Shown here: positions 53,575 through 63,388 of the stretch, one piece after another
Numbering within the stretch: the first letter of the stretch is position 1
Layout of the letters: the number at the start of each line of letters is the position of its first letter
From: Bacteroidota bacterium
Lineage (GTDB): Bacteria > Bacteroidota > Bacteroidia > Bacteroidales > Prolixibacteraceae
NCBI GenBank assembly: GCA_023251455.1
Contig: JAHEYT010000034.1
Span: forward strand, 1,659 to 65,658
DNA length: 64,000 nt
Direction: 5' to 3'
The notes under the pieces: generated by a model
Seen by the model: only the letters and a program-made list of their open reading frames with translations
Told to the model about the DNA's origin: nothing
The model's database searches: none
Position numbers and translations under genes: made by a program

Positions 53575-53766
53575 GTTTAATTTTTTGAAAGAATGTTGTA
53601 TGACATTTTTTGCATCTGGAAGATGTTTGGTTTTAACACAAAGAAAATATTGCGAGGACTCTCGAAAGGGCTTATTTTCAGTTAAGCTATTCTTATGCTT
53701 TGAAATATTAGGTCAGGGTTGTCTGTTTTAGGTTTATCTTTGAGTCCTGAAAAAAGCATAAATATC

Positions 53767-55653
53767 ATGACAGAAATAAAAGCTTGTAAATTGCTGAGGA
53801 TTTTACTCCTGGTTGTATTTTTTTCTGGAATATTGTCTTGCGGCAATCGGTCTGCGAGCGAAAAGAATCAGTCGGGCTCTGAAACTTCGGCTGCTTTGCC
53901 TGAAGATGTGAACGACGATGACGATGTGCAGGCAGTTGTCGCCTTATTGGTTTCTCCGGAAAATCCACGCCCGGGACAAGTTTTTCGGGTAATGGTCACT
54001 GGCAGTAAAAGTATCCTGAAAACAGAAATTAAGGTGAGCAGTCCTTCCGGAGAAATTGATGCGGAGAAAAGCAGAAACGGCGATGGATTGCCATTCTGGA
54101 GGATTGATGAATTTAAAGCCGGGGCAGAGGGCAAATATCATGTAGAGGTATCGGAGGGAAGTGCAAATGTCAGCCTCGATTTTTTTGTAACCGAAAAGCC
54201 CTCTCAATCTTCTTCGAATTCTGTTTGGAAAACATCACAAGGATGGGATGGCAAAATGGAGGCGCTTTATTCAGCTTGGGTAAATGCCCTGTTTTTTGAT
54301 GCTGATGAACGTTCGTCATGGACTGCGCTGCACGAAGTTACCCAGAATCAGGAGCTAAATTTTTTGCACAATCATTTGTCGCTGGGAGAAGATGATGCAG
54401 CCGGAAAAATCAGGGTATTGATGGAACCCGATTGCGCCGATAATCCATATTACCTTCGGGCTTACTTTGCCTGGAAACTTGGGCTTCCGTTTGGCTACCA
54501 TGAGTGCAACCGTGGATATTTAGGCAAAGCTCCCCAAACCGGACGATGGATTACAAATGAAACTGTCATCTCGAAAACGAATCCAACTCAGAAATTCAAT
54601 ACTTTCATGCGGATGGTGATGAACGGAGTTCATTCCGGATCGGCCAGGACTGCGCTAAACGACGAAAGTTCCGATTATTACCCGGTTCCGCTTACCCGCG
54701 AGGCTTTGCGCCCCGGTGTGGTTTATGCCGATCCTTATGGTCATACCCTCATTCTTGTTCGTCGTGTACAGCAAACCAGCAAAAGTCCGGGTGTGCTTCT
54801 TTCGGTTGATGCCCAGCCTGACGGAACGGTCGGAATCAAGCGATTCTGGAAGGGTAATTTTCTATTTAATACGAACGAAACAGAAGTAATTGGAGAACCC
54901 GGATTTAAAGCATTTCGCCCGATTGTGGTGAATGATGGCAATATCCGTTTGCTCAAAACGAATCAGATAACTGCCGAAGCTGGACTGATCCCATTTTCGC
55001 TTCAGCAAAAAGGATTGGAAAGTAATACCTTCTATCACACGATGGAGCAGATTATTAATTCCAAGCCTCTCGATCCGGAAATGGCGATGCTTGATTTGAT
55101 AAAGGCTTTGCACGAACAACTTACTGTTAGAGTAAACTCGGTTGCCAATGGAGAAGCGTATATGAAATCTCATCCGGGCACGGTTATTCCAATGCCGGGT
55201 GGAACTTCAGGGGTATTTCAGGCAGGTGGCTTATGGGAGGATTTTTCAACTCCGAACCGCGACTTGCGCCTCCTGATTGCGATGGATGCAGTTCTCGATT
55301 TTCCGGATAAGATTGTTCGTTCTCCTGATGATTTTAAACTACCCATGCTTCAATCTCCGGAAAAAGTAAAGAAAAATCTGGATGAATTATTGGCAGAGAA
55401 GTTGAATGAGCTTTCGATTACCTATACCCGCTCCAATGGGACGGAACAAACCCTTACAATTGCTGAAATTCTGAAACGAAAAGATGCGTTTGAAATGGCT
55501 TATAACCCGAACGATGGCGCCGAAATTCGCTGGGGAGCACCCGAAAACAGTGACGAGCGTTCAAGCTGCAAACGCCATGTTCCGGCAGGACAACTGAAAA
55601 CAATGCAAAAGGTCCGTGTGTGGTTTCAAAAGAGGCTTCATCCGCCAACTTAG
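53767..55653 (+). CDS. Large lipoprotein with putative transglutaminase/papain-like cysteine triad
   Basis: The start at 53767 gives a lipoprotein signal with Cys25 in GILSC; an in-frame ATG 48 bases earlier adds 16 unlikely residues. The 628-residue product has an Asp-rich linker (about 44-55) and an Ig-like beta domain (about 55-143). The rest is unrecognised. PDCADNPYYLRAYFAWKLGLPF (221-242) parallels the Cys-bearing helix of transglutaminase-like proteins, YGHTLILVRRV (324-334) the His strand, and LSVDAQPDG (345-353) the Asp, giving a possible Cys223-His326-Asp348 triad. That assignment is inference from spacing and motif shape only. It is probably anchored to a membrane facing the periplasm or outside. 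Confidence 0.65.
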   Translation: MTEIKACKLLRILLLVVFFSGILSCGNRSASEKNQSGSETSAALPEDVNDDDDVQAVVALLVSPENPRPGQVFRVMVTGSKSILKTEIKVSSPSGEIDAEKSRNGDGLPFWRIDEFKAGAEGKYHVEVSEGSANVSLDFFVTEKPSQSSSNSVWKTSQGWDGKMEALYSAWVNALFFDADERSSWTALHEVTQNQELNFLHNHLSLGEDDAAGKIRVLMEPDCADNPYYLRAYFAWKLGLPFGYHECNRGYLGKAPQTGRWITNETVISKTNPTQKFNTFMRMVMNGVHSGSARTALNDESSDYYPVPLTREALRPGVVYADPYGHTLILVRRVQQTSKSPGVLLSVDAQPDGTVGIKRFWKGNFLFNTNETEVIGEPGFKAFRPIVVNDGNIRLLKTNQITAEAGLIPFSLQQKGLESNTFYHTMEQIINSKPLDPEMAMLDLIKALHEQLTVRVNSVANGEAYMKSHPGTVIPMPGGTSGVFQAGGLWEDFSTPNRDLRLLIAMDAVLDFPDKIVRSPDDFKLPMLQSPEKVKKNLDELLAEKLNELSITYTRSNGTEQTLTIAEILKRKDAFEMAYNPNDGAEIRWGAPENSDERSSCKRHVPAGQLKTMQKVRVWFQKRLHPPT

Positions 55654-56394: not shown

Positions 56395-57159
56395 ATGAGC
56401 AAATCGTGTATTCTCTTCTGTAATTGTGGCGGTGGTGTAATTACTCCGGAAAAATTGCAACAAATCAAATCCAGTTTGGACGCGTTTGATGCTGACCTTT
56501 ATCAGCTCGATGATTTCTGCGGGATTGTTTTGGGCAGAAAGGATTTTATCAGGGCAATTGATCGGCAATACGAGCGAAAAATAATGGTTGCTTGTTATCC
56601 GCGGGCAATCAAGAACCTGTTGGCACAAAACGATCTGGAACTTTCGGGATTGGAAGTTTTGAATTTTAGGGAACTTTCTGTTGCTGACATTGAATCGAAA
56701 CTCCGGAATGATTATTCGTTTACTGAAGGTAAAGCTGCAGAAACTCTAATTGAAAGTGGTCTGGATGTTCCGGCCTGGTATCCGGTGATCGACCAGCCGT
56801 TGTGCATCGATTGTGGAAAGTGCTTCAAATTTTGTTTGTTCGGCGTTTATACATTTGGCGACAAACAGTTGAAAGTGGTGAATCCGCTGGCTTGCAAGAA
56901 TAATTGTCCGGCTTGCGGGCGGAATTGCCCAACTTCGGCCATTATTTTTCCGCGATTGAAAGAAGGTGGAGTTTTAGCTGGTGCAGAACCGGGAACAGAA
57001 GTAAAATCCAAAGGCCTGGCGGCTGACATAAATATGATCTCAACACTGAACCAGCGCTCGGCACTGCGCCGGAATATTTTTAGGGCTGGATTGGTTGAGC
57101 AGGCCGAAGCAGAACGAAGGAAGGCTCTGGAGGAATTAAAAAATTCAAATAAGGATTAA
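56395..57159 (+). CDS. Iron-sulfur protein: HdrA-like N-terminus plus two 4Fe-4S sites
   Basis: A 254-residue soluble protein. The N-terminal half (1-90) starts SCILFCNCGGGVI and continues to IMVACYPRAI, a pattern that resembles the Cys-rich N-terminal domain of HdrA-type electron bifurcation subunits (Cys5, 9, 11, 42, 67). The C-terminal half has CIDCGKCFKFC (137-147, CxxCxxCxxxC) and CKNNCPACGRNC (167-178, CxxxCxxCxxxC), enough for two 4Fe-4S clusters. It probably hands electrons to the radical SAM enzyme encoded 48 bases downstream, or takes part in a redox step of the same pathway. That role is inferred from position. Confidence 0.75.
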   Translation: MSKSCILFCNCGGGVITPEKLQQIKSSLDAFDADLYQLDDFCGIVLGRKDFIRAIDRQYERKIMVACYPRAIKNLLAQNDLELSGLEVLNFRELSVADIESKLRNDYSFTEGKAAETLIESGLDVPAWYPVIDQPLCIDCGKCFKFCLFGVYTFGDKQLKVVNPLACKNNCPACGRNCPTSAIIFPRLKEGGVLAGAEPGTEVKSKGLAADINMISTLNQRSALRRNIFRAGLVEQAEAERRKALEELKNSNKD

Positions 57160-57170
57160 CCAGAAATTTT

Positions 57171-57190
57171 AGACGCAATATATTGCGTCT
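57171..57190. repeat. Perfect 20-base palindrome in the leader of the radical SAM gene
   Basis: AGACGCAATATATTGCGTCT is fully self-complementary and followed by CTAC. It lies between the iron-sulfur and radical SAM genes, 18 bases before the ATG. It may be a dispersed palindromic repeat or a regulator site. Confidence 0.6.
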
Positions 57191-57207
57191 CTACAAAAAT
57201 GGAATAA

Positions 57208-58389
57208 ATGGGTTTATTAAAAAATATACTGATCCGGAGCGACAGGAAATGCCTGTACAAGTTCGTTGTGAACATGGGCATCAAAGGTTCCATGTCGTTT
57301 GCTAGGTTTCAGAAAAGGCAAAAGAAAGGCGAATTTTTTCCGGCTTTTAATTTTATTTCGGTTACCGACGACTGCAACCTGAATTGCCAGGGATGTTGGG
57401 TAATGGGAAAGGAAAAAAATAGCCGTTTGAAGCCGGACCAAGTTGATCGGATAATTGACGATACGAAAAAGATGGGCTCGTATTTCTTCGGAATTCTGGG
57501 TGGTGAACCATTGCTTTACAAACCACTTCCGGAGATCTTCAAAAAACATTCGGATTGCTACTTTCAACTGTTTACCAACGGAACGCTCATTACTCCTGAA
57601 GTGGCCGAAACGCTTCGGCAGTGCGCCAATGTGACTCCGCTCATCAGTTTTGAAGGTGATGAACAGGTTGCCGATGTACGCCGTGGAGGGAAAGATGTGT
57701 TTCAATCGGCGAATGTTGCTATCGATAATTGCGTCAAAGCCGGTTTGATCACCGGTGTAGCCATCAGCGTTTGCAAGTCGAACCTCGAAATGGCCATGTC
57801 GCCCAAGTTTATTCAATCACTGATCGACAAAGGAGTTGCATATTTGTGGTACTACATTTACCGCCCGGTTGGTCCGCATCCAAATTATGAACTGGCGCTC
57901 AGTTCCGACGAAATCCGGCAGCTTCGCCAACACATGGTTGATGCGCGCATGGAATACAGCATCGCCATTATCGATACCTATTGGGATGCCGATGGAAATG
58001 GCATGTGCCCGGCCGCTGAAGGCTTGAGCCACCACATCAATGCATCAGGATATGTTGAACCATGCCCGATTATTCAGTTTTCAGCCGATCATGTCGACGA
58101 CAAATCGTTGGATCGTTTATATGCCGAATCCGGATTTCTGAGCGATTTCCGGACGCAGATTCAACAAAAAACCAAAGGTTGTGTTGTGATGGAAGATCCG
58201 CACTGGCTGGCCGAATTTGTTAAAAAGCACGATGCAAAAAATACTTCCGGAAGAAAGGATGAACTCTATCGGTTGGCGACTGCTCCTGAGACCACCAGTC
58301 ACGGTTCGTGCAACGTGATTCCGGAGAAAAGCCGGATTTACCGCTTTGCCAAGAAACGGGCATTCTTTGGGCTGGGAGCTTATGGATGA
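57208..58389 (+). CDS. Radical SAM enzyme with C-terminal cysteines
   Basis: A 393-residue protein. The AdoMet-binding cluster motif is CNLNCQGC (Cys56, 60, 63; CxxxCxxC), with GGEPLL (98-103) as the AdoMet amino-group strand. The C-terminal region has Cys267 and Cys286 in NGMCPAAEGLSHHI and GYVEPCPII, plus Cys325 and Cys368, which could hold an auxiliary cluster as in SPASM-type enzymes. The radical SAM superfamily covers many reactions; here the neighbours point to isoprenoid or polycyclic substrates. A hopanoid-type HpnH function is possible but no sequence test was made. It is in an apparent operon with the genes at 56395, 58461 and 60043. Confidence 0.85.
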   Translation: MGLLKNILIRSDRKCLYKFVVNMGIKGSMSFARFQKRQKKGEFFPAFNFISVTDDCNLNCQGCWVMGKEKNSRLKPDQVDRIIDDTKKMGSYFFGILGGEPLLYKPLPEIFKKHSDCYFQLFTNGTLITPEVAETLRQCANVTPLISFEGDEQVADVRRGGKDVFQSANVAIDNCVKAGLITGVAISVCKSNLEMAMSPKFIQSLIDKGVAYLWYYIYRPVGPHPNYELALSSDEIRQLRQHMVDARMEYSIAIIDTYWDADGNGMCPAAEGLSHHINASGYVEPCPIIQFSADHVDDKSLDRLYAESGFLSDFRTQIQQKTKGCVVMEDPHWLAEFVKKHDAKNTSGRKDELYRLATAPETTSHGSCNVIPEKSRIYRFAKKRAFFGLGAYG

Positions 58390-58460
58390 TTAACAATTGA
58401 ACCCTTTACCATTTGAGGATAAATAAATGGTAAATCGTAAATAGATAAATCGTAAATAAT

Positions 58461-60032
58461 TTGAAGGTAAAAGAAAACATATTGGTTGTTCCGGAGAAAG
58501 CGCTGACGCGGAACCGGTTGAGGAAAGCGGCCCGCGAACTGGTTGCCGAACGGGGAATTGTGCCACCGGCAAGCTTCTTGTTTATTCAGCAAATGGCTGA
58601 TGAGATTATTGCCCAAACCGAAACCGATAATAGTTTTCGTGAATTTGCGATGGTGGTTTGCGGAAATGAAATCTGGCGCCCGGTGGTTGCTGCAACTCCA
58701 TATAATCGCCGTTTGCTGCTACTACCTCAATGCCTGAAAAACAACAGTTCGTGTCATGCTGAAATTGATGAATTAGGGCTGATTTGTGCCGGGTGTCAAA
58801 GCTGCCAGATTGATTCAATTTTGCAAAAGGCAGAGTCGCTTGGTTATTCCACGCTTGTTGCTGAAGGAACTACGGTTGCCATTAGTTTGGTTCAGGAAGG
58901 ATCGGTTGATGCGGTTGTTGGAGTCACTTGTATGTCTGTGCTTCAGAAATCGTTCGAGACCGTTTCAAAAGCAGCGGTGCCTGTCATAGGCGTTCCGCTT
59001 TTGTTCGAAGGTTGTGCAGAAACTGATGTAGACAACCGCTGGCTCGACGATGAACTATCCAATTTCAAGGAAAATGCAGAACTGAAACCAGTATCTGTTT
59101 CGGCGCTGAAAGAGCAGGTAAATGGCTTTTTTACTGAAGACAGACTGATCTCAATGATTGGCTCGGCGAACGATCGGACTACGCAATTGGCCATTCAGTC
59201 GATGCTTACCGGTGGGCAACGGATTCGCCCGCTGCTGACTGCTTTGGCTTATTCAGCTTATACTTCCGCTGTTTCCGAAGATTTGCTTACGGCGCTTTCT
59301 GTGGTCGTGGAATGTTTTCACAAGGCATCACTGATTCACGATGACATAGAAGATAACGACGATTTTCGCTACAATACCGAAACCATTCATAAACAAAATG
59401 GCATTCCGGTGGCCATCAATACCGGCGATTTTTTGCTCGGGAAAGGCTACGAATTATTGGGCAAATTGCCACTTGATGCATCAGCAATGGCTGCATGTTA
59501 TCAGTTGGTTGCCAACGGCCATGTGGGTTTGTCGCTTGGACAAGGAGCTGATTTATTGGCCAGCAAACACCATCAGATTCTTTCGCTCGAACAGCAACTC
59601 GAAATATTTGAACGTAAAACCGGTTCGGCCATTCGTGTAGCTTTGCTGCTTGGAGCGGTGGCTGCTGCAGCTTCCGAAGCTGATTTGACTATACTTAAGA
59701 CTTTCTCGGGTTACTTCGGAATGGCTTACCAGATTAAAGACGATCTGGATGAATATCGCGAGTCGAACGAGCATACCCAAGTTGCAGATTACCCATTGAT
59801 GCTTTCGTTGCTGGCAGAAAATGCTCCTGAATTGATGAACGAAGACTTGCGCATTGCCTATGCTGAAAATGACAAAATTCAAGTTGCGGAATGGTTCAAT
59901 TCACATTTCATCGTTCAAAAAGCTGATGAACTCCTTCAGGAATACACCTCGAAAGCTTACAACGAGCTTGACCAACTGGGAAACCTGAAAATGAAGTTAA
60001 GCTTGTACACAGTGTTAGGCAAAATATTCTGA
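58461..60032 (+). CDS. Fusion of DUF116 and trans-isoprenyl diphosphate synthase
   Basis: A 523-residue protein in one frame from TTG at 58461; no ATG is found before codon 46. Residues about 60-195 match DUF116: LLLLPQCLKNNSSCHAEIDE, ICAGCQSCQID (Cys109, 112, 115), AVVGVTCMSVL and VPLLFEGCAETDVD, with Cys91, 98, 157 and 185 also conserved-looking. Residues about 225-520 are a polyprenyl synthetase with GGQRIRPLLT (251-260), the first Asp-rich motif LIHDDIEDNDD (291-301) and the second YQIKDDLDEY (423-432), where the usual DDxxD reads DDLDE. It should condense isopentenyl diphosphate on an allylic starter. A DUF116 partner on the same chain is unusual. Confidence 0.88.
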   Translation: MKVKENILVVPEKALTRNRLRKAARELVAERGIVPPASFLFIQQMADEIIAQTETDNSFREFAMVVCGNEIWRPVVAATPYNRRLLLLPQCLKNNSSCHAEIDELGLICAGCQSCQIDSILQKAESLGYSTLVAEGTTVAISLVQEGSVDAVVGVTCMSVLQKSFETVSKAAVPVIGVPLLFEGCAETDVDNRWLDDELSNFKENAELKPVSVSALKEQVNGFFTEDRLISMIGSANDRTTQLAIQSMLTGGQRIRPLLTALAYSAYTSAVSEDLLTALSVVVECFHKASLIHDDIEDNDDFRYNTETIHKQNGIPVAINTGDFLLGKGYELLGKLPLDASAMAACYQLVANGHVGLSLGQGADLLASKHHQILSLEQQLEIFERKTGSAIRVALLLGAVAAAASEADLTILKTFSGYFGMAYQIKDDLDEYRESNEHTQVADYPLMLSLLAENAPELMNEDLRIAYAENDKIQVAEWFNSHFIVQKADELLQEYTSKAYNELDQLGNLKMKLSLYTVLGKIF

Positions 60033-60042
60033 CATTTAGCCG

Positions 60043-60939
60043 GTGAGTCAATCCACTTCCCATATTCGCTTTTACCAACAAATAATTGCTTTTCTTCGGG
60101 ATGCAATCGGTTTACTTGACGATCAGGGATGCGAAGAATTACTGCAATTTATTTTTAGTCAGCAAAATCCGGACGGTGGTTTTCATGATCGTGGAGGTCG
60201 GTCGGATTTGTATTATTCACTGTTCGGCGGGCTGATGATAAAAGCAATGGAGTCAGAAGTCCGAATGCCGCTCCCTGAGCGCGAAGCAGTCGAAGGGAGC
60301 AACCCACAGGGGGCAATCCTGAAATTAAAACAATTCATTGCTCAACAATCAAATTCCGAAGTGCCCGGATTTATTGAAAGATGTTGTTTGGTGTTGCTTC
60401 AGAAGGAATTGAACACTGGACGAAATTCACAAATCAAAGCTCTGATTTCGCTGGGAAAATCGTTTTGGAAAGAACGTCATTCCATTAATTTGTCTTACCG
60501 GAGTTTTGTATTGTTCCTGACACTGGATGCCGTTTTGCCCTTTCGCAAAATCCTGAAATTTGGAGCCAAAAAGATGTTGGGCCGAACAACGATTGATCAG
60601 CATTCGCCTTGCTCTGAAGTGGCTGCCAAAGTTTTCCTGCAAAAAATGATGAATCTTAATGGATCGGAGGATAAGGAATTGCTGAAGTCGTTTGTCTGCG
60701 AAACGGGCGGATTTAAAGCTTTTACGCATCTAAATAATGCAGACATGTTATCGACTGCAGTTGCTCTATTTGCATTTACTAATGCAGGCTACGACTTACG
60801 ATTACTTAAGCCTGCCTGCCTCGATTTCATCGGCCAAAATTTCTCGAATGGTGCTTTCCTATCCGGTGATGGCGATTTAACTACCGATGTAGAATATACC
60901 TTTTATGGGTTGCTGGCACTGGGAGTGTTAGCAGATTAA
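60043..60939 (+). CDS. Small terpene cyclase/prenyltransferase-repeat protein
   Basis: A 298-residue protein beginning with GTG, 10 bases after the fusion gene. It consists of alpha-alpha toroid repeats of the prenyltransferase-beta/squalene-cyclase kind: FSQQNPDGGFHDRGGRSDLYYSLFGGL near residue 45, ETGGFKAF at about 225, and NGAFLSGDGDLTTDVEYTFYGLLALG at the end. No DxDD acid motif is present. It is about half the length of a two-domain class II cyclase, so it may be a single-domain partner or scaffold, a lid for the synthase, or an inactive paralogue. The function is not known. Confidence 0.72.
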   Translation: MSQSTSHIRFYQQIIAFLRDAIGLLDDQGCEELLQFIFSQQNPDGGFHDRGGRSDLYYSLFGGLMIKAMESEVRMPLPEREAVEGSNPQGAILKLKQFIAQQSNSEVPGFIERCCLVLLQKELNTGRNSQIKALISLGKSFWKERHSINLSYRSFVLFLTLDAVLPFRKILKFGAKKMLGRTTIDQHSPCSEVAAKVFLQKMMNLNGSEDKELLKSFVCETGGFKAFTHLNNADMLSTAVALFAFTNAGYDLRLLKPACLDFIGQNFSNGAFLSGDGDLTTDVEYTFYGLLALGVLAD

Positions 60940-60959
60940 GTTCTCCGAATGTAATTGAT

Positions 60960-61247
60960 CTATTTATCCTCAGTATTTTGTCTGCTATCCCAAATCGATA
61001 ATACTATAATTTCTTTAGGGGTAATTTCGTAAATAATCAGATAGGCTTTCAGAATTTTCACTCTCACATTTTCTTTGTTTGTAGGCTTCCCAATAAACGG
61101 ATGACTGCTTATTAGTTTTAGCGACTTTGTGATCAATTCGTTGAGTTTTCTGCTATAGAATGATGATTTATTGTGTGCATTCCAGAAAGTAAAAATTTCT
61201 TTCCGCTCCTTTTGTGCTCTTTCCGTCCAGATTATTTGCCTAACCAT
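60960..61247 (-). CDS. RelE/ParE-type toxin
   Basis: A 95-residue basic protein with the ParE/RelE fold pattern: RQIIWTERAQKERKEIFTFWNAHN at the N-terminus, then LISSHPFIGKPT, VRVKILKAYLIIYEI and IIVLSIWDSRQN, which is the typical C-terminal strand. It is encoded downstream of its antitoxin with a 16-base overlap, so the two are translationally coupled. The target, either mRNA in ribosomes or DNA gyrase, cannot be told. It is inverted within the isoprenoid series at 56-63 kb. Confidence 0.85.
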   Translation of the reverse strand: MVRQIIWTERAQKERKEIFTFWNAHNKSSFYSRKLNELITKSLKLISSHPFIGKPTNKENVRVKILKAYLIIYEITPKEIIVLSIWDSRQNTEDK

Positions 61248-61468
61248 TCTTCTATATCTTTGTCGGCTTGTTCCTCTGTTAAAAACTCTCCATTTTTATA
61301 TTGAAGTTGCCCCTCCTCTACCGCTTTTATCTGTTCCTCAGAAAGCTCATAAATGCTGATGTCCGTTTCCTCATTTGCAATTAACCGGTACATTTCTTCC
61401 AACAACTCATTGTTTTCAATTTGGTTGATTTTTCCAATTAATCTCTTCTTTAATTCTGTTACTGTCAT
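61232..61468 (-). CDS. Antitoxin of the RelE/ParE-type pair
   Basis: A 78-residue acidic protein preceding the toxin. An N-terminal helical part (MTVTELKKRLIGKINQIENNELLEEMYRLI) may dimerise, and the C-terminal half is acidic and disordered-looking up to DIEEWLGK, which would wrap the toxin. No standard ribbon-helix-helix or Xre motif is evident, so its DNA-binding mode is uncertain, but an inverted repeat at the promoter suggests autoregulation. Annotation as antitoxin rests on the pairing. Confidence 0.78.
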   Translation of the reverse strand: MTVTELKKRLIGKINQIENNELLEEMYRLIANEETDISIYELSEEQIKAVEEGQLQYKNGEFLTEEQADKDIEEWLGK

Positions 61469-61482
61469 GACATTTCGTTTTT

Positions 61483-61505
61483 ACAAACTTACGAAATTAG
61501 TTTGT
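61483..61505 (-). promoter_or_regulatory. Promoter and candidate operator of the toxin-antitoxin pair
   Basis: ACAAACT and AGTTTGT form an inverted repeat with a nine-base spacer just upstream of the antitoxin start. On the minus strand it overlaps TAAGTTTG, a TAnnTTTG -7 box, which is where autorepression would act. Confidence 0.5.
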
Positions 61506-61564
61506 ATGAATTTTGAGAGGAATCTTCCTTCTTTTGTATCTTGCATCCTCATACTATAGTCCTC

Positions 61565-63388
61565 ATGAACAATCGCACCCAATCCCAGCTCTCCGAACTT
61601 ACCACCCTTTTACTGCAAAAGCGCAACGCTGCAGGTTATTGGGAAGGTCGACTTTCGTCAAGTGCGTTAGGTGTGGCAGTGGCCATTACGGCTTTGCATT
61701 TTTACGATGCTTCAGCAAATACTTCTGAAATTTCATCAGGCTTAAACTGGTTGGAAACAAACATCAATGATGATTGTGGATTTGGCGATTCGCCCACAAG
61801 CCAAAGCAATGTGAGTACCAGTTTGCTGTGTTATTCTGCAGTGAAAGCTTGCAGTGCGGATGGTCGGGACAGTTCGTTGCTCCTGAAAATTGGTGATTAC
61901 TTGCGCTCGCAAAATATTGATGTTAATTCAGAACAACTCATTCCGGCAATACTCGATTTTTACAAGACCGACCGCACTTTTTCAGTGCCAATCCTGACTA
62001 TGTGCGCATTGTGCGATGTTCCCGGAAAAGAAGCATTTGATTCTATTCCACAATTACCGTTCGAACTTTCGTTGTTACCGCGCTCATTTTACAGCATGCT
62101 AAATCTGAGTGTAGTGAGTTATGCTATACCGGCTTTAATCGCTGTTGGTATTGCCATATTCAGGCATAAACAACGAAAAAATCCGGCAATGAGGATGATT
62201 CGGGAAGCCTCAGTAAATAAATCTCTTGCTTTACTTCAGAAAATTCAGCCGGAAAGTGGCGGTTATCTGGAGGCTATTCCGTTGACAGCATTTGTTTGTT
62301 TGTGCCTTATTGAATCGGGTTACCGCGATCTGGAAGTGGTTCGCGATGGAATGAATTTTCTGAAACGCACTCAGCGTGAAGACGGCAGCTGGCCGATTGA
62401 CATTGATCTTTCGACATGGGTAACAACACTAGCAGTAAAATCACTGCGGACTAATTTAGATAAAGTCTTGTCCCAGGCAGAAAAGCAGCAAATTACCAAT
62501 CATTTGCTGGCGATTCAGAACAAGCAAATTCATCCGTTTAACGGAACGCAACCGGGTGGTTGGGGCTGGACATCGCATTCAGGCTCAGTGCCAGATGGTG
62601 ATGATACGCCAGGAACGATTCTGGCACTATTAGCGCTGAATCAGCAAAACCCGGAAGTTGTTTATGAGTCCGTTTTATCAGGAATTAATTGGTTAAGTCA
62701 ATTGCAGAACAGTGATGGAGGATTCCCCACATTTTCACGTGGTTGGGGTAAGTTGCCGTTTGATCAGAGTTGCTCTGATCTGTCGGGGCATGCGATTCTG
62801 GCCATGGCAAAAACGGCTCACGCTTATCGAAATATACTCAGCCAAAAACAGCTTTCAGCTATTAAGAAATCGTTTGTTCGCTCGGTTATTTATCTGGAAA
62901 AACATCAGAATAAATCGGGTTTCTGGCTGCCATTGTGGTTTGGAAATCAGCTCACTACCGATCATACCAACTCGGTTTATGGTACTGCGCGTGTGACTGC
63001 TTACCTGAATGAAACCCTTCAGACACAGCTCGGAAATGAATATTCAGTAATACTGAAACTGATGATAGATCGTGGATGTCATTATTTGACTTCAGTGCAA
63101 AATTGGGATGGAAGCTGGGGTGGAGCTAAAAATGTTCCCGGAACTATTGAAGAAACTGCACTTACTGTTACAGCACTTATTTCGAATGGATTTCAGGAAG
63201 AATGTACTTCAGGAATGAGCTGGCTGGCCGAAAAAACAAAATCCGACGGGATTGTTGCTTCACCCATCGGATTGTACTTTGCTTCTTTGTGGTATGATGA
63301 AGAGTTGTATCCTTTAACTGCGTATGTGGAATGTTTGTCAGTGACGATGGAGACTATTTCGTTACCACCACTGCCGGACTCACTTTAA
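61565..63388 (+). CDS. Squalene-hopene-cyclase-like class II terpene cyclase
   Basis: A 607-residue protein from ATG 61565 (an upstream TTG at 61541 is not needed). It is an alpha-alpha toroid of SHC length. The catalytic acid motif is in GGWGWTSHSGSVPDGDDTPG (331-350) with DGDD (344-347), matching DxDDT of squalene-hopene and class II diterpene cyclases. QW repeats appear at QREDGSW (270-276), QNSDGGF (381-387) and QNWDGSW (512-518). The segment LLPRSFYSMLNLSVVSYAIPALIAVGIAIF (170-199) is hydrophobic and fits the membrane channel helix. It should protonate and cyclise a linear isoprenoid, possibly the chain made by the fusion synthase. Product unknown. The 3' end overlaps the convergent gene by 35 bases. 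Confidence 0.85.
   Translation: MNNRTQSQLSELTTLLLQKRNAAGYWEGRLSSSALGVAVAITALHFYDASANTSEISSGLNWLETNINDDCGFGDSPTSQSNVSTSLLCYSAVKACSADGRDSSLLLKIGDYLRSQNIDVNSEQLIPAILDFYKTDRTFSVPILTMCALCDVPGKEAFDSIPQLPFELSLLPRSFYSMLNLSVVSYAIPALIAVGIAIFRHKQRKNPAMRMIREASVNKSLALLQKIQPESGGYLEAIPLTAFVCLCLIESGYRDLEVVRDGMNFLKRTQREDGSWPIDIDLSTWVTTLAVKSLRTNLDKVLSQAEKQQITNHLLAIQNKQIHPFNGTQPGGWGWTSHSGSVPDGDDTPGTILALLALNQQNPEVVYESVLSGINWLSQLQNSDGGFPTFSRGWGKLPFDQSCSDLSGHAILAMAKTAHAYRNILSQKQLSAIKKSFVRSVIYLEKHQNKSGFWLPLWFGNQLTTDHTNSVYGTARVTAYLNETLQTQLGNEYSVILKLMIDRGCHYLTSVQNWDGSWGGAKNVPGTIEETALTVTALISNGFQEECTSGMSWLAEKTKSDGIVASPIGLYFASLWYDEELYPLTAYVECLSVTMETISLPPLPDSL

What the first reader, a model, noticed from the sequence alone, without database searches (positions are those of the whole stretch)
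56395..63388. Candidate uncharacterised isoprenoid pathway: iron-sulfur protein, radical SAM, DUF116-isoprenyl synthase, two cyclase-fold proteins
Seen: five plus-strand genes, four of them with gaps of only 10-71 bases, coding for an HdrA-like iron-sulfur protein, a radical SAM enzyme with extra cysteines, a synthase fused to DUF116, a small toroid-repeat protein and a DGDDT-bearing class II cyclase. Known: isoprenyl synthases feed class II cyclases, and radical SAM enzymes (for example HpnH) modify hopanoids. Inferred: the group makes a cyclised, radical-modified isoprenoid, perhaps a membrane lipid. I recall no described pathway with this gene set.
Basis: partly seen in the sequence, partly recalled or inferred. 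Interest (0 to 1): 0.85.

Follow-up and report, generated by a model that had tools for sequence, protein, structure and literature searches.

The report
Squalene-free cyclic isoprenoid gene cassette
Five neighbouring genes that are kept together in several bacterial phyla likely form an undescribed pathway that would build a long isoprenoid chain, alter it by predicted radical chemistry and fold it into rings without using squalene, perhaps giving a membrane lipid of a kind not yet known.

Summary
The window carries five plus-strand genes: A, an iron-sulfur protein with two 4Fe-4S-type sites; B, a radical SAM protein with four extra invariant Cys; C, DUF116 fused to a polyprenyl diphosphate synthase; D, a single alpha/alpha toroid; E, a squalene-hopene-cyclase (SHC)-like class II cyclase. 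They are a real unit: in 148 genomes of the order, C, E and strong B matches occur in the same 8, and A-B-C-D-E stands in order in 29 of 33 well-covered Bacteroidota loci, less often (7 of 24) in Verrucomicrobia/Planctomycetes-type loci. It is not standard hopanoid synthesis: six cassette genomes listed as 96-100% complete lack the squalene/phytoene synthase domain, and the SHC and HpnH models are missed by far. The synthase has the invariant Ala-Ser pair of long-chain synthases; E keeps the SHC catalytic residues checked. Best reading: a squalene-independent route to a cyclised, radical-modified polyprenoid. Enzyme activities, product and order of steps are untested. The only earlier mention found is of the DUF116-synthase fusion (PMC5898192).

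The parts
56395..57159 (+). A: iron-sulfur protein, 254 aa; two four-Cys sites of 4Fe-4S type (residues 137-147 and 167-178 in L004 numbering)
   Evidence: Fer4 matches, all below their curated cut-offs; best NCBIfam match is the Fe-S part of HdrA, 42 bits against a cut-off of 1300; all eight Cys conserved at 92% or more in 59 sequences. In PVC-type loci it is often split into A1 and A2. That the N-terminal half resembles HdrA's N-terminus is recalled, not from a call.
57208..58389 (+). B: radical SAM protein, 393 aa, CxxxCxxC at C56/C60/C63 plus invariant C189, C267, C286, C325 (possible auxiliary cluster)
   Evidence: Radical_SAM 60 bits; invariant columns over 23 sequences; nearest solved sequence SkfB
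58461..60032 (+). C: DUF116-polyprenyl diphosphate synthase fusion, 523 aa
   Evidence: (1960 proteins with E<=0.001 among 8000 scored candidates; the 120 listed all carry both Pfam domains)
58608..59048 (+). DUF116 domain of C (residues 50-196); seven invariant Cys C91 C98 C109 C112 C115 C157 C185; predicted flavodoxin-like fold, likely Fe-S binding
59190..59774 (+). Polyprenyl synthase domain of C (residues 244-438); FARM DDIED, SARM DDxx[DE], invariant Ala289-Ser290 at -5/-4, RRG changed to RY[GDN]
   Evidence: PF00348 137 bits; residue counts over 30 sequences
60043..60939 (+). D: single-domain alpha/alpha toroid, 298 aa
61541..63388 (+). E: SHC-like class II cyclase, 615 aa (likely ATG start at 61565)
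   Evidence: SQHop_cyclase_C/N; profile match to SHC 1gsz, E 5.6e-36; D352xD354D355, W293, W343, F398, W466 each 26 of 26

Best explanation
The five genes form a conserved cassette that likely makes a cyclised polyprenoid by a route independent of squalene: the synthase half of C would make a long polyprenyl diphosphate, B would modify the isoprenoid by radical SAM chemistry with electrons passed through A and the DUF116 domain, and E, probably together with D, would cyclise it by protonation. Shown: gene order, co-occurrence, absence of the squalene/phytoene synthase domain from many cassette genomes, and conservation of the motif residues. Inferred: chain length (longer than C15, probably C25 or more, from the invariant Ala-Ser pair); that DUF116 carries an Fe-S cluster (seven invariant Cys, three just after predicted strands and four in the loop after the first of these); that B acts on the isoprenoid and not on a protein; and that D binds or cyclises a prenyl chain. 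The order of B relative to E is open: modification of the linear chain first, or of the cyclised product, as HpnH does to diploptene in hopanoid synthesis.
For: Unit: C in 8 of 148 order-level genomes, E in the same 8, B at 550 bits or more in the same 8, D in 7 of those 8. A-B-C-D-E order in 8 of 10 and 21 of 23 well-covered loci of two Bacteroidota groups and 7 of 24 PVC-type loci. An E-type cyclase in 26 of 26 cassette genomes examined, three of them in pieces, also where it is not beside C. Protein distances of the five genes correlate at r 0.82-0.96. Not squalene: 14 of 38 cassette genomes lack PF00494 (completeness not given there), and so do G004, G005, G024, G040, G154 and G166, listed as 96-100% complete. 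A second cyclase of 41-71 bits in an ORF of 662-943 aa occurs in 9 of the 26, and all nine have two PF00494 matches; none of the 14 without PF00494 has a second cyclase match above 24 bits. Long chain: A289-S290 in 30 of 30, no insertion in FARM; the same pair is given as the sign of a long-chain synthase for TgCoq1, which makes C35 (PMC9600589, passages). Cyclase: the DxDD Asp and the aromatic residues aligned with SHC W312, F365, Y420, W489 are 26 of 26. Toroid D. A radical enzyme seems needed: B in 16 of 18 PVC-type genomes, and the two without it carry a B12-type radical SAM gene in B's place.
Against: No enzyme or product has been tested. In C the second Arg of the RRG motif, which as I recall helps bind the diphosphates, is Tyr in 29 of 30, so the reaction may not be ordinary IPP elongation. 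In PVC-type loci the genes are often scattered (17 of 24 without the contiguous five). D was not found in G040 at E<=1e-20. A was not found beside C in L015 and L016 at 25 bits. Most cassette genomes do have PF00494 matches (24 of 38), the window's own genome two, so squalene is not excluded as substrate there. B is replaced in two genomes, and B paralogues (222-264 bits) occur in two genomes without C and E, so B's substrate is not settled by family. The GcvH-like and CobW-type neighbours could point to a protein or cofactor target instead of a lipid.
Confidence: 0.6

Rival explanations
1. Short-chain version: C makes GGPP (C20) and E cyclises it like a copalyl diphosphate synthase, giving a diterpenoid secondary metabolite.
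For: Class II cyclases of GGPP and FPP were matched by E and by D's fold; small residues at -4/-5 also occur in type II and III GGPP synthases (PMC9385802, passages).
Against: E matches SHC (E 5.6e-36) far better than ent-CPS 5bp8 (3.7e-7) or drimenyl diphosphate synthase 7xq4 (1.3e-12) (7xq4 named). FARM has no two-residue insertion, and the Ala-Ser pair is that of a long-chain synthase; type III GGPP synthases share both traits. The window's genome has a separate synthase with Phe at -5, as short-chain enzymes have (L002).
Confidence: 0.17
2. Radical or reductive coupling: DUF116, A and B replace squalene synthase, joining two prenyl diphosphates to a squalene-like hydrocarbon that E then cyclises as an SHC would.
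For: PF00494 is missing in many cassette genomes while an SHC-like cyclase is kept; DUF116 has invariant Cys and is fused to the synthase; the RRG to RYG change could mean a different acceptor.
Against: I recall no enzyme that couples prenyl diphosphates this way; cassette and PF00494 pairs coexist in several Verrucomicrobia-type genomes, so the cassette is not simply a substitute there.
Confidence: 0.12
3. Standard hopanoid synthesis: E is an SHC working on squalene and B an HpnH adding deoxyadenosine.
For: Domain-level likeness of E to SHC and of B to HpnH (37 bits); PF00494 matches in 24 of 38 cassette genomes.
Against: E scores 79 bits against a hopene cyclase cut-off of 431, B 37 bits against an HpnH cut-off of 225; no PF00494 match in six cassette genomes listed as 96-100% complete; a second, SHC-like cyclase gene is seen in 9 of 26, all with PF00494 pairs.
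Confidence: 0.05
4. The cassette prenylates or otherwise modifies a protein or cofactor: D acts like a prenyltransferase beta subunit on the GcvH-like lipoyl protein, with B as a maturase.
For: D is nearest to Rab geranylgeranyltransferase beta; a GcvH-like protein lies in 12 PVC-type loci, 11 of them with the EGFKA lysine motif; B's nearest solved relative is the peptide maturase SkfB.
Against: The residue aligned with the His of the DPFHT motif (a zinc ligand, recalled) is Tyr in D; Y57 and Y58 are invariant in 34 of 34. No GcvH-like ORF was found in the 43 Bacteroidota loci at E<=1e-4. The model leaves E unexplained.
Confidence: 0.06

Closest known systems
Squalene-hopene cyclase / hopanoid pathway (SHC, HpnH, HpnCDE)
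   Same: E has SHC-type domains, the DxDD acid and the aromatic residues checked; a radical SAM protein accompanies the cyclase
   Different: Own polyprenyl synthase fused to DUF116; squalene/phytoene synthase domain absent from many cassette genomes; E and B far below the SHC and HpnH model cut-offs; extra toroid and Fe-S proteins
Long-chain trans-polyprenyl diphosphate synthases (TgCoq1 type; HepT and IspB recalled)
   Same: FARM, SARM and the Ala-Ser pair before FARM (PMC9600589, passages)
   Different: Fused to DUF116; RY in place of RR after FARM; below the cut-off of each of the 16 NCBIfam models matched
DUF116 / COG1852 proteins
   Same: Pfam match 113 bits, conserved Cys, flavodoxin-like fold as predicted by PMC5898192, which also names a fusion to polyprenyl synthetase in Pirellula staleyi (Psta_0175)
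   Different: The section read (3.6) proposes electron transfer and mentions no cyclase, radical SAM protein or isoprenoid pathway
Prenyltransferase beta subunits and single-domain class II cyclases such as MstE
   Different: No conserved DxDD in D; His of DPFHT replaced by Tyr
Sporulene/tetraprenyl-curcumene route of Bacillus (recalled)
   Same: Also a cyclisation of a long polyprenyl chain with an SHC-type enzyme and without squalene (recalled)
   Different: Uses a different first cyclase; no radical SAM, DUF116 or Fe-S genes (recalled, not tested)

Membership tests
Squalene-hopene cyclase (equivalog) | Score above the NCBIfam TIGR01507 cut-off (431.1) | tested here: not met
   79.3 bits
Squalene-hopene cyclase (equivalog) | DxDD(T) acid motif and aromatic residues at W312, F365, Y420, W489 (their role recalled) | tested here: met
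   D352, D354, D355, W293, W343, F398, W466 each 26 of 26, aligned to SHC; F365 is Trp and Y420 is Phe here
Hopanoid pathway | Squalene synthase (PF00494 proteins) present in the genome | tested here: not met
   Missing in 14 of 38 and in G004, G005, G024, G040, G154, G166, 96-100% complete; matches are present in the other 24 of 38 and, twice, in the window's own genome, so not met for the cassette as a family
HpnH adenosylhopane synthase | Score above the TIGR03470 cut-off (225.05) | tested here: not met
   37.2 bits for B; 35.2 and 45.8 for two relatives
Radical SAM superfamily | CxxxCxxC and Pfam Radical_SAM above cut-off | tested here: met
   60 bits against 29.5; C56, C60, C63 invariant in 23 of 23
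SPASM/twitch radical SAM enzymes | Auxiliary cluster Cys after the core domain | tested here: inconclusive
   C267, C286, C325 (and C189) invariant, but no SPASM domain match in Pfam at E<=0.1
Trans-polyprenyl diphosphate synthases | Pfam PF00348, FARM and SARM | tested here: met
   136.9 bits against 27; D294, D295, D298, D427, D428 30 of 30
Trans-polyprenyl diphosphate synthases | RRG motif after FARM | tested here: not met
   RY in 29 of 30, RN in 1
DUF116 | Pfam PF01976 above cut-off with conserved Cys | tested here: met
   113.2 bits against 25; seven invariant Cys
Protein prenyltransferase beta subunit | Alpha/alpha toroid fold | tested here: met
Protein prenyltransferase beta subunit | Zinc ligands (Asp, Cys, His; recalled) | tested here: not met
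   His of DPFHT aligns to invariant Tyr58 in D; Asp and Cys positions not checked
Class II terpene cyclase (for D) | DxDD motif | tested here: not met
   Acids of D conserved at 90% or more are D55, D234, D278, D282, E284, none in DxDD spacing
All of these enzymes | Catalytic activity and product | not testable with these tools
   needs expression and lipid analysis

The most novel reading that the evidence does not exclude
A new class of bacterial polycyclic polyprenoid lipids, made from C25 or longer polyprenyl diphosphate without squalene by a radical SAM/DUF116/class II cyclase machine and spread over Bacteroidota, Verrucomicrobiota, Planctomycetota and Kiritimatiellae, which would be a candidate living source of the tricyclic and extended cyclised polyprenoid fossils (cheilanthanes, tricyclohexaprenol series) whose makers, as I recall, are unknown.
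Probability: 0.15. Interest if true: 0.95.

Novelty: new variant of a known kind. Interest (0 to 1): 0.75.

Why it matters
Polycyclic isoprenoids are the classic bacterial membrane regulators and molecular fossils, and, as I recall, nearly all described ones come through squalene. A widespread cassette that carries its own chain synthase, an SHC-type cyclase and a radical enzyme, and is kept in genomes without a squalene/phytoene synthase domain, would make an unknown lipid class directly testable. It also gives a new gene context for DUF116. Genome surveys that read any SHC-like gene as hopanoid production could miscount these organisms.

Tried and rejected

Literature. Searches for the gene set listed no paper that, from titles, abstract starts and the passages opened, describes it. 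Two papers hold all of radical SAM, polyprenyl synthetase and squalene; in one the words belong to separate contexts (PMC8692599, passages), in the other a radical SAM enzyme and an SHC are listed in a Leptospirillum hopanoid-type cluster and polyprenyl synthetase in another cluster (PMC12654047, passages). For DUF116, 24 papers were listed; only PMC5898192 was opened (one section read), the titles of the others look unrelated; one search listed the same paper alone. Of the papers listed on fossil tricyclics I opened passages of two and found no statement on their source, so that link is recalled. The library is open-access only, so absence in print is not proved.

Reading E's substrate length from sequence was given up: SHC-like residues are kept but do not tell chain length.
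Full report
OBSERVATION. The five ORFs are at the stated places, all on the plus strand. A-B, B-C and C-D are 48, 71 and 10 bases apart; D-E are 601 bases apart, and in that gap lies a ParE-type toxin gene on the minus strand (60960-61247, PF05016 46 bits). Pfam confirms the classes: Fer4-type sites in A (each below its cut-off), Radical_SAM in B, DUF116 plus polyprenyl_synt in C, a sub-threshold Prenyltrans match in D, SQHop_cyclase C and N in E. Against L004 the aligned proteins are 69-90% identical with dN 0.06-0.21 and dS 1.08-1.41, so all five are under purifying selection. The nearest relatives in named records are titled Prolixibacteraceae.

A CONSERVED UNIT. A scan of one genome per species with C found 309 relatives, of which the best 80 were kept as loci L004-L083. 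I split them by their order in that list into the window's own group (L004-L017, 14 loci), a second group that is Bacteroidota by title except L038 (titled Akkermansiaceae) (L018-L046, 29), and the rest, called PVC-type (L047-L083, 37: mostly Verrucomicrobia, with Planctomycetota, Kiritimatiellae, one Hydrogenedentota and two titled only 'bacterium'). Counting only loci with at least 2700 bases before and 3200 after C, the order A-B-C-D-E is found in 8 of 10, 21 of 23 and 7 of 24 (matches of 25 bits or more to the window's proteins, 200 for C; the alternative radical SAM B2 counted as B). So the order is firm in Bacteroidota and looser in PVC-type genomes. An E-type cyclase was nevertheless found in 26 of 26 cassette genomes searched, in G067, G074 and G076 in pieces (these are 26 of the 38, 12 Bacteroidota ones were left out).

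CO-OCCURRENCE. In 148 genomes drawn from the order, C (E<=1e-60) is in 8 and E (E<=1e-60) in the same 8: G000, G040, G084, G117, G154, G166, G208, G211. B at 550 bits or more is in the same 8; two further genomes, G129 and G168, and a second place in G166 hold B paralogues of 222-264 bits. D at E<=1e-20 is in 7 of the 8, not in G040. A was not searched this way. The patchy spread (8 of 148; 7 of 128 genera) with full co-occurrence of B, C and E is what a functional unit that is gained or lost whole would give. Protein distances of the five families correlate with r 0.82-0.96 over the loci that share the pair, and 0.74-0.91 within the second group; shared ancestry of hosts contributes to this.

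NOT SQUALENE. PF00494 (squalene/phytoene synthase; HpnC and HpnD belong to it, recalled) is missing in 14 of 38 cassette genomes (no completeness is given for these, and some are the same genomes as in the other calls under another handle, for example G050 and G166). Where completeness is listed, cassette genomes G004 (99%), G005 (100%), G024 (99%), G040 (96%), G154 (98%) and G166 (98%) have none, while G003, G007, G014, G084 and G211 have only one match, in an ORF of 279-287 aa. Conversely G020, G022 and G023 have PF00494 matches but no fused C. In the 26 genomes a second cyclase (41-71 bits in an ORF of 662-943 aa) is seen in nine, G062, G064, G066, G067, G068, G070, G071, G074 and G077, and all nine have two PF00494 matches; G048, G069 and G075 have two PF00494 matches but no such cyclase; none of the 14 genomes without PF00494 has a second cyclase match above 24 bits. 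So ordinary hopanoid-type genes, where present, are separate from the cassette. The window's own genome has two PF00494 matches (one near a contig end) but one cyclase match only, E, so for this genome alone squalene as substrate is not excluded.

C. Synthase half: FARM DDIED and SARM DDxx[DE] are intact; the residues at -5 and -4 before FARM are Ala and Ser in 30 of 30. For TgCoq1, a C35 synthase, the same pair is described as allowing long chains, against Phe-Phe in C15 synthases (PMC9600589, passages); small residues there also occur in some C20 synthases (PMC9385802, passages), so the length is a prediction. The second Arg of the RRG motif is Tyr in 29 of 30; the window genome's two other synthases keep RR (L002, L003). 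DUF116 half: seven Cys are invariant in all 42 and 30 aligned sequences. In the model (pLDDT 86) C91, C157 and C185 come just after strands 84-88, 151-156 and 175-180, and C98, C109, C112 and C115 sit in the loop after the first, which for a flavodoxin-like sheet would put them on one face (inferred; no coordinates were measured). This agrees with the fold and electron-transfer role proposed by PMC5898192 (section 3.6 read), which also notes the fusion to polyprenyl synthetase in Pirellula staleyi. No cluster was tested.

A AND B. A has two sets of four Cys, all conserved at 92% or more in 59 sequences; in many PVC-type loci its halves are separate genes A1 and A2. B keeps CxxxCxxC and C189, C267, C286, C325 in 23 of 23. 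It is not HpnH by score (37 against 225), nor any other of the 25 NCBIfam models listed of 60 matched. B is in 16 of 18 PVC-type genomes; the two without, G063 and G078, carry in their loci L050 and L082 a B12-type radical SAM gene (TIGR04013-like, 58-73 bits against 251) in B's place, as does L065. This suggests that a radical SAM step is needed but can be filled by another enzyme.

WIDER UNIT. A CobW-type GTPase was found in 10 of 29 second-group loci and 12 of 37 PVC-type loci, in most beside the cassette, and a GcvH-like protein in 12 of 37 PVC-type loci, 11 with the EGFKA lysine motif. In part of the second group an ArsP-type permease and PQQ-type propellers follow. Their role is not known; they could serve metal supply, electron transfer, or a protein target. 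None of these was found beside the cassette in the window's own group.

MECHANISM. C makes the chain (predicted), E and probably D cyclise it (predicted from fold and motif), B alters it with electrons from A and DUF116 (inferred). Hopanoid synthesis is the nearest working analogue: SHC makes diploptene and HpnH adds a deoxyadenosyl radical to it (PMC12583986, passages). The cassette works like that in outline but fails the SHC and HpnH membership tests, and its feedstock probably differs.

VERDICT. A real, conserved and, as far as the held open-access library shows, undescribed isoprenoid cassette. The enzyme kinds are known; the combination and the apparent squalene independence are new. The weakest points are the missing biochemistry, the unusual RY motif and the looseness in PVC-type genomes.

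Noticed in passing
window 60960-61247 (-): A ParE-type toxin gene (46 bits) lies between D and E, on the other strand, with a small ORF before it at about 61250-61468 that may be its antitoxin (no Pfam match). D-E spacing varies among close relatives, so it may be an insertion into the operon.
   Followed up: partly
L051, L053, L057, L059, L064, L066, L069, L070, L076, L077, L078, upstream of A; L048: A GcvH-like protein (EGFKA lysine motif in 11 of 12 loci) and, in all of these but L059, a CobW/COG0523-type GTPase accompany the cassette; the GTPase also lies downstream of the cassette in 10 second-group loci (far downstream in L032 and L040), six of them with a Cys-rich C-terminus.
   Followed up: partly
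L018, L019, L029, L030, L045, downstream of E: An ArsP-type permease, three or four PQQ-type propellers and an NHL-like propeller stand in line after E. Families were assigned on one member of each cluster only (the permease tested was that of L033, which lies upstream of A; best NCBIfam match SaoE, below its cut-off).
   Followed up: partly
L050:7849-9867, L065:2523-4079, L082:1-1785: A B12-type radical SAM gene (TIGR04013-like) stands where B is expected; B is missing from the two of these genomes that were searched.
   Followed up: yes
window 53719-55653 (+): A 644-aa ORF, lipoprotein-like by eye, without any Pfam match at E<=0.1; an ORF family of like length, strand and place lies upstream of the cassette in six loci of the window's group, not compared directly.
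   Followed up: no
G166 C18:64765-65847; G129 C47:6941-7999; G168 C45:221230-222300: Paralogues of B (222-264 bits, ORFs of 459-466 aa) exist outside the cassette in a few genomes of the order.
   Followed up: no
L006, L010, L038, L062: Record titles that fit poorly: Odoribacter and Chitinophaga pinensis for cassettes close to the Prolixibacteraceae ones, Akkermansiaceae for one inside the second Bacteroidota group, and Akkermansia muciniphila for a genome of 7.9 Mb (G067); probably misnamed or mixed MAGs.
   Followed up: no
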